28,499 nt of DNA from a virus: the IMG/VR virus record IMGVR_UViG_3300009130_000105, positions 1 through 28,499 of that record; one strand, written 5' to 3'. The notes under the pieces were generated by a model. It worked only from the letters and a program-made list of their open reading frames with translations, searched no databases and was not told where the DNA came from. A program made the translations under genes and the position numbers. Below are positions 101 through 2,734 of this stretch, one piece after another (position 1 is the stretch's first letter; every line of letters starts with the position of its first letter).

Positions 101-119
101 TATTTTTATTATTTATATA

Positions 120-165
120 GCTTGTTGTATGGCGAAGCGTACCGTTTCAATGGCATATAACAAGC
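120..165. repeat. attC-like imperfect hairpin 1
   Basis: Outer arms GCTTGTT (120-126) and AACAAGC (159-165) are perfect complements. Inner arms GTATG (127-131) and CATAT (154-158) nearly pair, and a 22-base loop lies between. There is no T-run, so it is not a standard terminator. Its core (TGTATGGCGAAGC...) resembles the core of the hairpin at 1880-1946 (TGTATGGTGCGTA...), so the two seem related. This nested-arm layout is that of integron attC sites, but the outer box does not match the attC consensus GTTRRRY. Confidence 0.45.
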
Positions 166-193
166 AAATAAAACACACTAACCGATTTAGTAA
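158..193 (+). repeat. 36-base direct repeat, copy 1
   Basis: This 36-base segment recurs at 2663-2698 with only two differences. It starts at the right arm of hairpin 1 and ends in CGATTTAGTAA, just upstream of a promoter. The second copy also lies just upstream of a related promoter. The two copies bracket the recombination genes and the cassette-like array. Confidence 0.75.
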
Positions 194-225
194 TTAAAAA
201 TAAGAAGATTTTAACCCTTTTATTA

Positions 226-255
226 TTGTTATTCTAAATAATATAATTATATTTG
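226..255 (+). promoter_or_regulatory. Promoter for the recombination genes, shared-box type
   Basis: The -33 element TTG is at 226-228 and the -7 element TATATTTG at 248-255, with 19 bases between. This is a full match to the Bacteroidota vegetative promoter pattern. The -33 side carries the box TTGTTATTCTAAATAAT (226-242), found with small changes at four other promoters here. Inside it, TTATT-CTA-AATAA is a dyad, so a repressor or activator could bind. Confidence 0.75.
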
Positions 256-274
256 ATACAAATAAAAATAAATT

Positions 275-820
275 ATGGAAACAAAAAAAACACACTGGAA
301 AAAAAACAACGATTCGCGATATATTAGCGGAGAAGATTTAAAACATGGCGAGTCAATCGGTAAAGGTTTACGTCCTGAAATGGTTGTATCTATTGTATCA
401 TTCGAAGACTCTGAGACTTTCGACCAAAACAATCAAATCAAAGTATTAAAAACAGGCTTTAAACTTGTTAATGTTGAAACTGGTGAAATGCTATATAAAC
501 CAGTTATACTAAATAATATAAACGGAGATTTTTGTGTAAAAGAATTTAAAAGCGAATTTTTAGAGGATTGGATAAATAAACCTTTTGTGCTTTTCGCTAA
601 ACCTGATCGCCGTCATGGATTTGTAGCAAGGTTTAAAAAATACTATCCAAAAGCCAATGTTTCAGATATTAACGCTTTAAAGGTTTTGAATGAATCAACA
701 ACAATTGAAGAACTTCAAAGTAACTGGTCTAAACTTACTCAGTCAGAACAAAAACTCCCAACGGTTAAAGCCTTAAAGGATAAGTTAAAAGTTGAATTAA
801 AAGTTGCTGATAATGTTTAA
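275..820 (+). CDS. Phage HWKK-type protein, recombination partner of YqaJ exonuclease
   Basis: A 181-residue protein with an N-terminal HWKK motif (residues 7-10), a middle part with KPVILNNIN and EDWINKP segments, and a C-terminal helical part (about 130-178, IEELQSNWSKL...ALKDKL). This order matches a widespread but functionally undescribed phage family usually encoded beside YqaJ exonucleases, as here. By position it may act as a DNA-binding or annealing partner of the exonuclease; that is inference. The ATG is preceded by an A-rich leader and the promoter at 226-255. Its stop overlaps the ATG of the exonuclease gene, so the two are probably co-translated. Confidence 0.7.
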   Translation: METKKTHWKKNNDSRYISGEDLKHGESIGKGLRPEMVVSIVSFEDSETFDQNNQIKVLKTGFKLVNVETGEMLYKPVILNNINGDFCVKEFKSEFLEDWINKPFVLFAKPDRRHGFVARFKKYYPKANVSDINALKVLNESTTIEELQSNWSKLTQSEQKLPTVKALKDKLKVELKVADNV

Positions 821-1466
821 CAGAACCGACATAATACAACAAACTATTGAATGGCATGAAGTTAAACACGCCAAAATTGGTGGGACACTTTCGAAAGGAC
901 TATTCACAAAAGGCGACGATCTTTTTTTTAAAATACTCAGCCAAAGAATTGAACCTTTTGACCCTGACGAAATAGAAGATTTTTTTGAAAATAAAGCAAT
1001 GCAACGCGGAAACGATTTAGAACCTTTAGGACTTGAATATTTAGAAGAATATACTGGTCTTAAATTTAATAGTACCGGATGGCTTCAGAGTGAAGAAAAT
1101 GAATTGATAGGAATTTCGCCCGATGGAATAACCGAAGATTTAAAAATTTCAGCCGAAATAAAATGTCCTGGAGCTAAAAAACACACCGAAACAATATACA
1201 ATAATTGTATTCCAAATGATAACTTGAATCAAGTTCTACATTCTTTTATAGTGAATAAAAATCAAGAAAAGCATTATTTCATATCATTTAGACCAGAATC
1301 TCCAAAACATTTTATAAAAGAAACAACCCTTGATTCAATAATAAATCTAGGGACAAAAGCAAGACCAGACTTAAAAACAGTCAAAGAGTGGCGAGATATT
1401 GGAATCAATAAAGCCGATGAACTACTCAAAAGAATAAAAGAAGCTGAAAAAAATATTGAATTTTAA
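813..1466 (+). CDS. YqaJ-family viral recombinase exonuclease
   Basis: A 217-residue protein of the lambda-exonuclease/YqaJ type, which degrades one strand of double-stranded ends to feed phage recombination. Visible active-site parts are QRGNDLEP (64-71), SPDG (102-105, metal-binding Asp104) and AEIKCP (114-119, catalytic Glu115 and Lys117), followed by a conserved-looking Gln in NLNQVLH. The length fits the family. I chose ATG 813, which overlaps the stop of the upstream gene, over a TTG at 804. The gene ends six bases before a GTTAGCA box that seems to mark the left edge of inserted cassette-like DNA. Confidence 0.9.
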   Translation: MFNRTDIIQQTIEWHEVKHAKIGGTLSKGLFTKGDDLFFKILSQRIEPFDPDEIEDFFENKAMQRGNDLEPLGLEYLEEYTGLKFNSTGWLQSEENELIGISPDGITEDLKISAEIKCPGAKKHTETIYNNCIPNDNLNQVLHSFIVNKNQEKHYFISFRPESPKHFIKETTLDSIINLGTKARPDLKTVKEWRDIGINKADELLKRIKEAEKNIEF

Positions 1467-1522
1467 ACCTTGTTAGCAAACGTTATGAAATACAGTAAAA
1501 ACTTTTAATTTAAACTTTAGAG

Positions 1523-1615
1523 ATGGCAAAAACACATTATAGGGATGGGAGCATTATAGCTGATGCACCACCACACGAAAAGGAAAAATGGCGTAAACGG
1601 TTTGGCTATGATTAG
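1523..1615 (+). CDS. Possible 30-aa protein in cassette-like unit 1
   Basis: A short ORF (start MAKTHYRDGS, end WRKRFGYD) between two GTTAGC boxes. The ATG follows an A/T-rich leader after the 1472 box. The product is charged, with a PPHEKEKWRKR stretch, and has no membrane segment. Nothing else codes in this 212-base gap, and its place at the same distance from a box as its neighbours supports it weakly. Function unknown; it may be chance. Confidence 0.35.
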   Translation: MAKTHYRDGSIIADAPPHEKEKWRKRFGYD

Positions 1616-1678
1616 TCATTTGAGGAACGAAAATTATTAATTCATAGGTGGTGTTAGCCATCTTTTAAAATTACAAAA

Positions 1679-1888
1679 ATGAGAAGAATAATTGAACAAC
1701 TAAAAGAACAACGAGAAAAAGCAAAGGATACGTTTATAGAAAATAGTTTTATAAAAAGGAATTGTAAGATAGATGCACCTTGCCCCGATACCGATGCTGA
1801 TTTAGATGCTATTGCAGAACTAAACCAAGCTATCAGTATTTTAGAAAACGCTACAATGGCAAAAGAGCAGCATGTTAATTGTGGCTAA
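1679..1888 (+). CDS. Small hypothetical protein, cassette-like unit 2
   Basis: A 69-residue, mostly helical, charged protein. Residues 1-24 (RRIIEQLKEQREKAKDTF) look like a coiled coil, a short Cys-containing link follows (CKIDAPCP), and a second helix covers about 40-60. No family recognised. The ATG is 19 bases after a GTTAGCC box. The C-terminus Cys-Gly-stop is encoded by TGTGGCTAA, the left arm of the hairpin at 1880-1946, so gene end and repeat are fused. Confidence 0.6.
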   Translation: MRRIIEQLKEQREKAKDTFIENSFIKRNCKIDAPCPDTDADLDAIAELNQAISILENATMAKEQHVNCG

Positions 1889-1946
1889 CGCATTGTGTAT
1901 GGTGCGTATGCCGATAGGCTATGCAATATACACGTTGTTAGCCACA
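1880..1946. repeat. attC-like nested hairpin 2
   Basis: Outer arms TGTGGCTAAC (1880-1889) and GTTAGCCACA (1937-1946) are perfect 10-base complements. Inner arms GTGTAT (1895-1900) and ATACAC (1928-1933) are also perfect. Spacers of 5 and 3 bases separate the arms, and the central part is further semi-palindromic. This matches the R''-L''-L'-R' layout of integron attC sites. The outer box GTTAGCC differs from GTTRRRY at one base. There is no T-run after it. Confidence 0.6.
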
Positions 1947-1978
1947 GTACTTTAACCACTAAATTTAAGGATAATATT

Positions 1979-2665
1979 ATGCAATACTTTGGAGGAAAAG
2001 CAAGAATAGCAAAAGACATAGTAAAGGTGTTGAATGAATACCGAAAACCAAACCAAACATTTATAGAGCCGTTTTGTGGGGGAATAAATATTACCTGCTT
2101 AATGGGCGATAATATAATTGCCAATGATAAGAATTGGGAACTTATAGAGATGTATAAAGCTATACAGAATGGTTGGTTGCCACCAGAAAATGTAAGTGAA
2201 GATGACTATGAAAAAGCAAAGACAACAGATGATGCAAAAATAAAAGCCTTTATCGCTATTGGATGCAGTTACTCTGGTAAATGGTTTGGTGGATATGCGA
2301 GAGGGCAAAAGGGAAGAAACTATGCTAAAAACGCAAAAAATAGCCTTGCTAAGAAATTTAAAACATTGGGAGATGTTAAGTTTATTAGTAAAAGTTATGA
2401 TGAGATTGAGTGCAAAAATGCCTTGATTTATTGCGACCCACCTTATAACGACACTACTAAATATAAATTTGGAAGTTTTGACAGTAATTCTTTTTGGCAA
2501 TGGTGTAGAGATATGAGCAAGAAAGGAAACACAGTAATAATTAGCGAATACAAAGCACCTGATGATTTTAATTGCATTTGGAGCAAAGAAACGAAAACAG
2601 ATATAAGAACTAAAGCCAACGGAAAAGAAAGTAGAACTGAGAAGCTGTTTCTGTATTGTGGCTAA
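1979..2665 (+). CDS. D12-class N6-adenine DNA methyltransferase (Dam-like)
   Basis: A 228-residue methyltransferase. N-terminal QYFGGKARIA (2-11) and FIEPFCGG (28-35) form the S-adenosylmethionine-binding start typical of D12 enzymes, and DPPY (153-156) is the catalytic motif. A target-recognition region lies between (about 60-140). The likely role is methylation of adenine in phage DNA, perhaps to evade host restriction; no partner nuclease is nearby, so it is an orphan. I chose ATG 1979 because the protein motif starts there; an upstream extension to 1895 would run through the hairpin. The gene ends in Cys-Gly-stop inside a TTGTGGCTAAC box, as does the ORF before it, which suggests acquisition as a cassette. 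Confidence 0.9.
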   Translation: MQYFGGKARIAKDIVKVLNEYRKPNQTFIEPFCGGINITCLMGDNIIANDKNWELIEMYKAIQNGWLPPENVSEDDYEKAKTTDDAKIKAFIAIGCSYSGKWFGGYARGQKGRNYAKNAKNSLAKKFKTLGDVKFISKSYDEIECKNALIYCDPPYNDTTKYKFGSFDSNSFWQWCRDMSKKGNTVIISEYKAPDDFNCIWSKETKTDIRTKANGKESRTEKLFLYCG

Positions 2666-2698
2666 CAAGCAAATAAACCACACTAAACGATTTAGTAA
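2663..2698 (+). repeat. 36-base direct repeat, copy 2
   Basis: Matches 158-193 at 34 of 36 positions. It begins at the stop codon of the methyltransferase gene and lies 36 bases before the promoter at 2735. The two copies may mark duplicated leader DNA, or sites where the intervening block was gained. Confidence 0.75.
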
Positions 2699-2734
2699 GT
2701 AGGTTTATCAAATAACCATCAAATAAAAATAGAA

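What the first reader, a model, noticed from the sequence alone, without database searches (positions are those of the whole stretch)
101..2700. attC-like cassette array with a methyltransferase inside a phage genome
Seen: a nested hairpin at 1880-1946 with perfect outer (10-base) and inner (6-base) arms, a related hairpin at 120-165, and three GTTAGC(A/C) boxes each 19-44 bases before an ORF. Known: integron attC sites have this double-arm form and lie at the end of each cassette ORF. Inferred: phage DNA has captured three small cassettes, one a D12 adenine methyltransferase that could guard against restriction. The box departs from GTTRRRY at one base and no integrase is present, so it may be a separate Bacteroidota cassette or repeat family.
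Basis: partly seen in the sequence, partly recalled or inferred. Interest (0 to 1): 0.8.

Follow-up and report, generated by a model that had tools for sequence, protein, structure and literature searches.

The report
Phage gene cassettes of a Bacteroidota integron
A marine phage fragment carries swappable gene cassettes, one encoding a DNA methylase, of an integron-like system that standard integron models miss; some related phages carry the recombinase too, and sibling phages differ by blocks gained or lost exactly at its docking site.

Summary
The hairpins and boxes are real. Window 1598-2666 holds two cassettes of an integron-like system of Bacteroidota and their phages. Each cassette has its own inverted ends (GTTRN5...N5YAAC; 38 seen in related loci, 1 expected in shuffles) and an attC-like folded site. 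The core of hairpin 1880-1946 recurs unchanged in over a dozen unrelated viral contigs with different flanks, and at 91% in a cyanophage. The methyltransferase cassette recurs at 92.7% DNA identity in an unrelated 102-kb virus, edges exactly at the sites.

The likely enzyme is a tyrosine recombinase lacking the IntI-specific insert; none lies in this fragment. In Flavobacteriaceae chromosomes, 35 of 49 recombinase loci have cassettes straight after the gene. In phages (Freya, Leef, Ingeline, metagenomic viruses) the array ends directly before the recombinase gene. Isolates Freya_1, _2 and _6 differ by 842, then 1374 nt, nested and exactly at that site.

Qi et al. 2023 reported integrase-less attC clusters in phages, including Polaribacter phage P12002L, so the window itself is a new member of that kind. 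The recombinase-bearing phage lineage, reversed ORF polarity and nested arrays were not found in the papers searchable here. The third proposed cassette is unsupported. No activity was tested.

The parts
124..161 (+). ORF-less mini-element GTTGTATGG...CATATAAC (hairpin), related to one in virus L048
   Evidence: Fold z -4.0; 34 nt at 97% in L048
159..196 (+). First copy of the possible landing (attI-like) sequence AAC|AAGCAAATAAAACACACTAACCGATTTAGTAA
   Evidence: 92% repeat of 2663-2701; same place after an end box as attI in other phages; function inferred, weak
813..1466 (+). YqaJ-like phage exonuclease (core phage gene before the array)
   Evidence: PF09588
1471..1595 (+). Box GTTAGCA and a 30-aa ORF (1523-1612); not supported as a cassette, possibly a decayed one
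   Evidence: No inverse end box for GTTAGCAAA; the DNA before AAC 1596-1598 reads GGCGTAAAC
1598..1888 (+). Cassette 2: weak site hairpin (1596-1659), box GTTAGCC at 1653, ORF of 69 aa, end box GTGGCTAA|C
   Evidence: Ends match 8 of 9; 84% DNA match over 1596-1674 in L010
1679..1888 (+). 69-aa ORF of unknown function in cassette 2; its stop codon lies in the end box
   Evidence: no Pfam match
1887..1946 (+). attC-like site before the methyltransferase: AACGCATTGTGTATGG...CAATATACACGTTGTTAGCCACA
   Evidence: z -5.3; core unchanged in many viral contigs with unrelated flanks
1889..2665 (+). Cassette 3: site hairpin plus methyltransferase plus end box, the exchangeable unit
   Evidence: 92.7% identical in virus L048 with edges at 1887 and 2666
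1979..2665 (+). D12 class N6-adenine DNA methyltransferase, 228 aa; its stop codon lies in the end box
   Evidence: PF02086 E 4e-17
2658..2666 (+). End box GTGGCTAAC, exact inverse of GTTAGCCAC 1937-1945
   Evidence: I7
2664..2701 (+). Second copy of the possible landing sequence AAC|AAGCAAATAAACCACACTAAACGATTTAGTAA, directly after the last cassette
   Evidence: position as attI in phages with a recombinase; function inferred, weak

Best explanation
The region is a small cassette array of an integron-like system of Bacteroidota and their phages, without its recombinase in this fragment. Shown by sequence: cassettes with cassette-specific complementary ends; attC-like sites with a consistent strand bias in folding; whole units shared between unrelated phages; the same kind of site next to a tyrosine recombinase and a landing site in chromosomes and in other phages; nested presence or absence of blocks exactly at that landing site in sibling phage isolates. 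Inferred: a tyrosine recombinase supplied in trans (host, co-infecting phage, or the missing part of this genome) acts on the folded single-stranded site and cuts at AA|C (G|TT on the other strand), excising or inserting units; the array is read together with the co-directional phage genes; the methyltransferase modifies phage DNA and so blunts host restriction.
For: Cassette rule 38 against 1.0 in shuffles. Core shared by unrelated viral contigs and by cyanophage S-CBS2. Methyltransferase unit at 92.7% in L048 with edges at the sites. Viruses L006 and L067 share one cassette at 92.9% but have both end boxes changed together. 35 of 49 flavobacterial recombinase loci followed by a cassette, shuffles 15 of 360. 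Phage recombinases with the array ending at a similar sequence directly before the gene. Freya_1, _2, _6: 0 mismatches, then 842 and 1374 nt more, exactly at AAC|ACCCC. Folding strand bias 107 of 113 chromosomal and 13 of 14 viral sites. A site of the related phage P12002L was recombined by IntI1 in the laboratory (PMC9892861).
Against: No recombinase in the 28.5-kb fragment and most array-bearing viral records searched have none, though many are fragments. The box GTTAGCC departs from GTTRRRY. Cassette 1 does not fit. The landing sequence of the window resembles those of other phages only weakly. P12002S and P12002L differ by a joint inside hairpin arms, not at the cut point, so exchange need not always be site-specific. 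Part of the loci were chosen because they carry related sites. No activity was measured for this recombinase family.
Confidence: 0.87

Rival explanations
1. An ordinary integron fragment: attC cassettes captured from a bacterium with a canonical IntI, as in the phage CALINs of Qi et al. 2023, with no separate system.
For: Same logic of cassette, site and attI; IntI1 can recombine a P12002L site; some boxes fit GTTRRRY.
Against: No canonical IntI over the cut-off in 299 Flavobacteriaceae genomes, while the same kind of sites stands behind a recombinase lacking the IntI insert. Variable boxes are longer (5 bases after GTTR).
Confidence: 0.12
2. Cassettes move between phages by homologous or short-homology recombination at the shared hairpins, using phage enzymes such as the YqaJ exonuclease; the hairpins are only linkers.
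For: A core of 44 or more identical bases is shared by unrelated phages; a YqaJ exonuclease lies next to the array; the P12002S/L joint lies inside hairpin arms.
Against: Does not explain complementary ends 700 nt apart or their joint change, exact joints at the landing site, or the arrays behind recombinase genes. It may act in addition.
Confidence: 0.08
3. Transposon-like elements (MITE type) with terminal inverted repeats.
For: Units have inverted ends.
Against: Ends differ from unit to unit yet match within a unit; head-to-tail arrays; insertion at one fixed place; no target duplication seen in the Freya, L048 or S-CBS2 joints.
Confidence: 0.02
4. The hairpins are transcription terminators or RNA elements between phage genes, not recombination sites.
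For: They lie between co-directional genes and fold well.
Against: No Rfam match. A terminator explains pairing across one hairpin, not pairing between the two ends of a gene, nor exact insertion joints.
Confidence: 0.03

Closest known systems
Clusters of attC sites lacking an integrase (CALIN) in phages: Qi et al. 2023, PMC9892861, including Polaribacter phage P12002L
   Same: Cassette array with methyltransferases and no integrase; P12002L sites belong to the same family as the window's; divergent attC directions were noted there.
   Different: That paper treats them as pieces of ordinary integrons; it names neither the insert-less recombinase, the phages that carry it, nor the shared cores.
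Canonical integron (IntI, attI, attC; class 1 and Vibrio type)
   Same: Recombinase, adjacent landing site, tandem cassettes with one hairpin site each, strand bias of folding, change of the array at attI.
   Different: Recombinase lacks about 42-47 residues of IntI between KDR and HxLRH; chromosomal landing site lies 3' of the gene; boxes GTTRN5 rather than GTTRRRY; ORFs turned round in phage cassettes.
XerA/XerC/XerD-like tyrosine recombinases (NF040815 and relatives)
   Same: The chromosomal recombinases score above the NF040815 cut-off (233.9 and 228.3 against 220); same core without the IntI insert.
   Different: The 375-aa forms carry about 100 extra N-terminal residues; the family stands next to cassette arrays, whereas Xer-like proteins of 277-279 aa in the same family of bacteria do not (L137, L153, L154).

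Membership tests
Canonical integron | IntI with its specific insert, over the TIGR02249 cut-off | tested here: not met
   None in the window; relatives score 101.7-218.6 against 265 and split into two stretches; 53-58 residues instead of 99-100 between KDR and HxLRH
Canonical integron | R boxes RYYYAAC/GTTRRRY | tested here: not met
   GTTAGCC and GTGGCTAAC depart at one base; relatives vary freely after GTTR
Canonical integron | attC hairpin with R and L arms, unpaired spacer and variable end | tested here: met
   Window 1880-1946
Canonical integron | One strand of the site folds better (bottom strand relative to attI) | tested here: met
   107 of 113 chromosomal sites, 13 of 14 viral sites in the same sense relative to attI
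Canonical integron | attI next to the integrase gene, cassettes joined there | tested here: inconclusive
   Met in relatives; in the window only an attI-like repeat, no recombinase
Canonical integron | Site-specific recombination by the integrase | not testable with these tools
   Only comparative evidence; IntI1 recombined one site of P12002L in published work
Bacteroidota/phage cassette family described here | Exact inverted ends GTTRN5...N5YAAC with ATT before the end box | tested here: met
   Window cassette 3: GTTAGCCAC...ATTGTGGCTAAC; cassette 2 at 8 of 9
Bacteroidota/phage cassette family described here | Same site core beside unrelated genes elsewhere | tested here: met
   19 viral contigs hold the 21-mer
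CALIN (attC cluster without integrase) | At least two attC sites by HattCI/IntegronFinder, no integrase | not tested
   Those models were not available; two sites and no recombinase by my own criteria

The most novel reading that the evidence does not exclude
Bacteroidota phages have their own lineage of integrons: a phage recombinase distinct from IntI, a landing site directly before its gene, and cassettes whose ORFs point towards that site so that the whole array is co-directional with the recombinase and the genes after it. Phages use it to gain and lose accessory genes such as methyltransferases, and the cassettes cross between phages of different host phyla. Several 'integrases' taken as signs of a temperate lifestyle (Freya, Leef, Ingeline) would then be cassette integrases.
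Probability: 0.6. Interest if true: 0.92.

Novelty: new variant of a known kind. Interest (0 to 1): 0.84.

Why it matters
Integrons are held to be rare in Bacteroidota: IntegronFinder 2.0 reports one complete integron in the phylum proper, in Salinibacter (PMC9024848). The data here suggest a common integron-like system there that standard models do not name, shared with phages that can move cassettes between hosts, even to a cyanophage. The Freya isolates offer a cultured phage-host pair in which gain and loss of cassettes by a phage could be watched directly, and many small phage ORFs of unknown role could be asked cassette by cassette. It also warns that a tyrosine 'integrase' in a flavophage need not mean lysogeny.

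Tried and rejected
Rfam scan: nothing. First viral pattern with GTTGTGTATGG and ACACGTTGTTAG: no match, because the window core reads ATTGTG there. A count of all 10-nt inverted repeats by first three bases: GTT only 3-fold enriched, so the specific rule was used instead. Searching IntI by TIGR02249: no genome over the cut-off, which led to the sub-threshold recombinases. L042's 387-aa recombinase (Arm-DNA-bind_5, SAM_5) is of another integrase type and was set aside; phi18:3 gp037 was not classified. Relatives of the YqaJ exonuclease (L072-L087) gave no clean empty site. The landing sequence AAGCAAATAAANCACACTAA is found outside the window only in L034, 99.9% identical to the window. Paper searches for Bacteroidota integrons or integron-like cassettes found no prior description; subscription papers and preprints were not searchable. 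The core pattern was in only 5 loci of the 84,980-genome collection, all Bacteroidota; the collections differ in make-up, so I do not turn this into a rate. No covariance model was built and no structure was predicted: the end-pairing and joint evidence was more direct.
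Full report
WHAT WAS CHECKED. The window is the whole of a 28,499-base virus record. It folds far better than shuffles (z -5.3), and better on the + strand than on the - strand (-19.3 against -15.3 kcal/mol). The hairpin at 124-161 is also better than chance (z -4.0, stretch 117-166). The three GTTAGC(A/C) boxes are where stated.

CASSETTE ENDS. The key feature is not the hairpin alone. The methyltransferase unit starts GTTAGCCACAGTAC (1937) and ends GTATTGTGGCTAAC (2653-2666), inverse of each other some 700 nt apart. 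In cyanophage S-CBS2 a cytosine methylase unit starts GTTACCTGC and ends GCAGGTAAC; in Cellulophaga phage phi18:3 three units have the ends GTTAGCAAC/GTTGCTAAC, GTTAGCGAG/CTCGCTAAC and GTTAGGCAC/GTGCCTAAC. So the ends differ between units and match within a unit. Over some 80 loci, a start GTT[AG]N5 with an exact inverse end that is preceded by ATT and followed by G was seen 38 times against 1.0 in shuffles (part of the loci were fetched because they carry related sites). Viruses L006 and L067 share one methyltransferase cassette at 92.9% DNA identity but have different boxes (GTTATGCA and GTTACCTA), changed at both ends together.

SPREAD. The 21-mer ATTGTGTATGGTGCGTATGCC is in 19 viral contigs; a few are near-copies of each other. 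In nearly all, 44 or more bases are identical and both flanks are unrelated. One is S-CBS2, a phage of Synechococcus (91% over 66 nt); its cassette has 33% G+C between flanks with 44-47%. The window unit 1887-2666 recurs at 92.7% in a 102-kb virus (L048, record G021), starting at AAC|GC and ending at TAAC, with unrelated DNA outside. In a collection of 84,980 bacterial and archaeal genomes a pattern for this core gave five loci, all Bacteroidota, two of them with phage genes around.

THE RECOMBINASE IN CHROMOSOMES. No canonical IntI passes its cut-off in 299 Flavobacteriaceae genomes. Sub-threshold tyrosine recombinases, mostly of 370-400 aa, were then read with their flanks. Behind most of their stop codons stands a palindrome or short AT-rich stretch, then GTTRN5, a small ORF, the inverse box and further units, up to ten in a row. 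A first cassette with exact 9-nt ends within 260 nt of the stop codon was found in 35 of 49 loci and in 15 of 360 shuffles; several failures are cut by contig ends, and Xer-like proteins of 277-279 aa (L137, L153, L154) have none. A phylum-wide sample gave the recombinase (E up to 1e-40) in 70 of 198 genomes, and a cassette within the 1.5-kb flank in 18 of 30 loci read. These recombinases have the SAM-like and catalytic domains but lack the IntI insert: 58 residues between KDR and HxLRH in nearly all, against 99-100 in IntI1 and a Shewanella IntI. The chromosomal site read on the other strand has the same conserved parts as the phage site.

THE RECOMBINASE IN PHAGES. G021 and G022, both with arrays, encode 268- and 264-aa recombinases without the extra N-terminal part. 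A search found more. In four of these viruses (L158, L159, L160, L163) an end box stops at AAC|TAYYRYATAWCAAYMA directly before the start codon. The isolates Freya and Leef (Polaribacter) and Ingeline (Cellulophaga) have an end box at the same place. Eight of nine phage recombinases form one branch (98/96); Leef has a long branch and is unplaced. These isolates were described with their integrase as a sign of a possible temperate lifestyle; integrons are not mentioned (PMC8776804).

NATURAL EXPERIMENT. Freya_1, _2 and _6 come from one host strain. Over 1300 nt up to the landing site Freya_1 is identical to the others. Freya_2 then has 842 more nt, starting with a site hairpin and ending GTTTACAAC, before ACCCCTATAACAACAATAAG. 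Freya_6 has the same 842 nt without a mismatch and 1374 more, ending CTACCAAC, before the same sequence. Freya_10 has yet another unit there. Whether these are gains or losses cannot be told, but the joint is exact each time and the blocks are nested towards attI, as integron-type insertion or excision at attI predicts.

POLARITY. In chromosomes ORFs mostly run away from attI (123 against 20). In viruses they mostly run the other way relative to the site (28 against 3), that is, towards attI where it is known. The type of box next to attI and the better-folding strand are the same relative to attI in both (107 of 113 and 13 of 14). So the recombination polarity is shared and the ORFs are turned in the phage cassettes. 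This fits co-directional reading with the phage recombinase and the genes after it. How cassettes with turned ORFs arise is not explained.

THE WINDOW. Cassette 3 (1889-2665) is certain. Cassette 2 (1598-1888, ORF of 69 aa) is well supported by matching ends (8 of 9) and by a relative in L010. The piece before it is not supported as a cassette. In both cassettes the stop codon TAA lies in the end box. After the array, and after the mini-element 124-161, stands a 39-nt repeat that may be the phage's landing site; no recombinase is in this fragment. I therefore call the window a recombinase-less array of this system.

MECHANISM AND CONFIDENCE. Shown: structure, exchange of units, linkage to a recombinase and landing site in relatives, exact variation at that site. 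Inferred: cutting at AA|C on a folded strand by a recombinase supplied in trans; restriction evasion by the methyltransferase (a D12 domain is present; its target and effect are unknown). The P12002S/L pair, with no recombinase found, differs by a joint inside hairpin arms, so homologous or illegitimate exchange also happens.

PRIOR KNOWLEDGE. Qi et al. 2023 found integrase-less attC clusters in phages, among them P12002L with two methyltransferases, noted divergent attC directions there, and showed that IntI1 can use one of its sites. IntegronFinder 2.0 lists one complete integron in Bacteroidetes proper, in Salinibacter. I found no description of this recombinase family with its arrays, or of complete phage versions, but preprints and many journals were out of reach.

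VERDICT. Observation confirmed; interpretation partly supported. The window is a new member of a known kind (phage cassette clusters), and the system it leads to is a new variant of the integron.

Noticed in passing
L201-L206 and L196 (Polaribacter phages Freya_1, _2, _6, _10), region before the integrase gene: Sibling isolates differ by nested blocks of 842 and 1374 nt exactly at AAC|ACCCCTATAACAACAATAAG, which may account for part of their genome-size spread (44.0-48.9 kb).
   Followed up: partly
L003 (4020-5140) and L005 (4017-4045), Polaribacter phages P12002S and P12002L: The two phages differ by a stretch with three small ORFs whose joint lies inside the hairpin arm (TTGTGTAT), not at the box; looks like short-homology deletion or insertion.
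   Followed up: partly
viral cassettes against chromosomal cassettes: ORFs in viral cassettes point the opposite way, relative to the site, from those in chromosomal cassettes; how such turned cassettes are made is unexplained.
   Followed up: partly
L002 3996-4966 (Synechococcus phage S-CBS2): An AT-rich cytosine methylase cassette of the Bacteroidota type sits in a cyanophage, directly after the TATAAC at the end of gene gp006: transfer across host phyla.
   Followed up: partly
window 124-161; L094 1111-1142; L048 5424-5464: ORF-less mini-elements with matching or nearly matching boxes and a short loop containing CGTTTYAATG; in L094 and the window they stand directly before the (possible) landing site. 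Role unknown.
   Followed up: no
window 1886-1888 and 2663-2665: The stop codon TAA of both cassette ORFs is part of the end box YTAAC.
   Followed up: no
L115, L119, L147 (Flavobacteriaceae chromosomes): Duplicated cassettes in tandem within chromosomal arrays (for example two units of 1469 and 730 nt repeated in L147).
   Followed up: no
L042 2410-2788 (Aureispira): A short tandem repeat array (VCLYMQLCIYGSY units) lies near an attC-like site in this contig.
   Followed up: no
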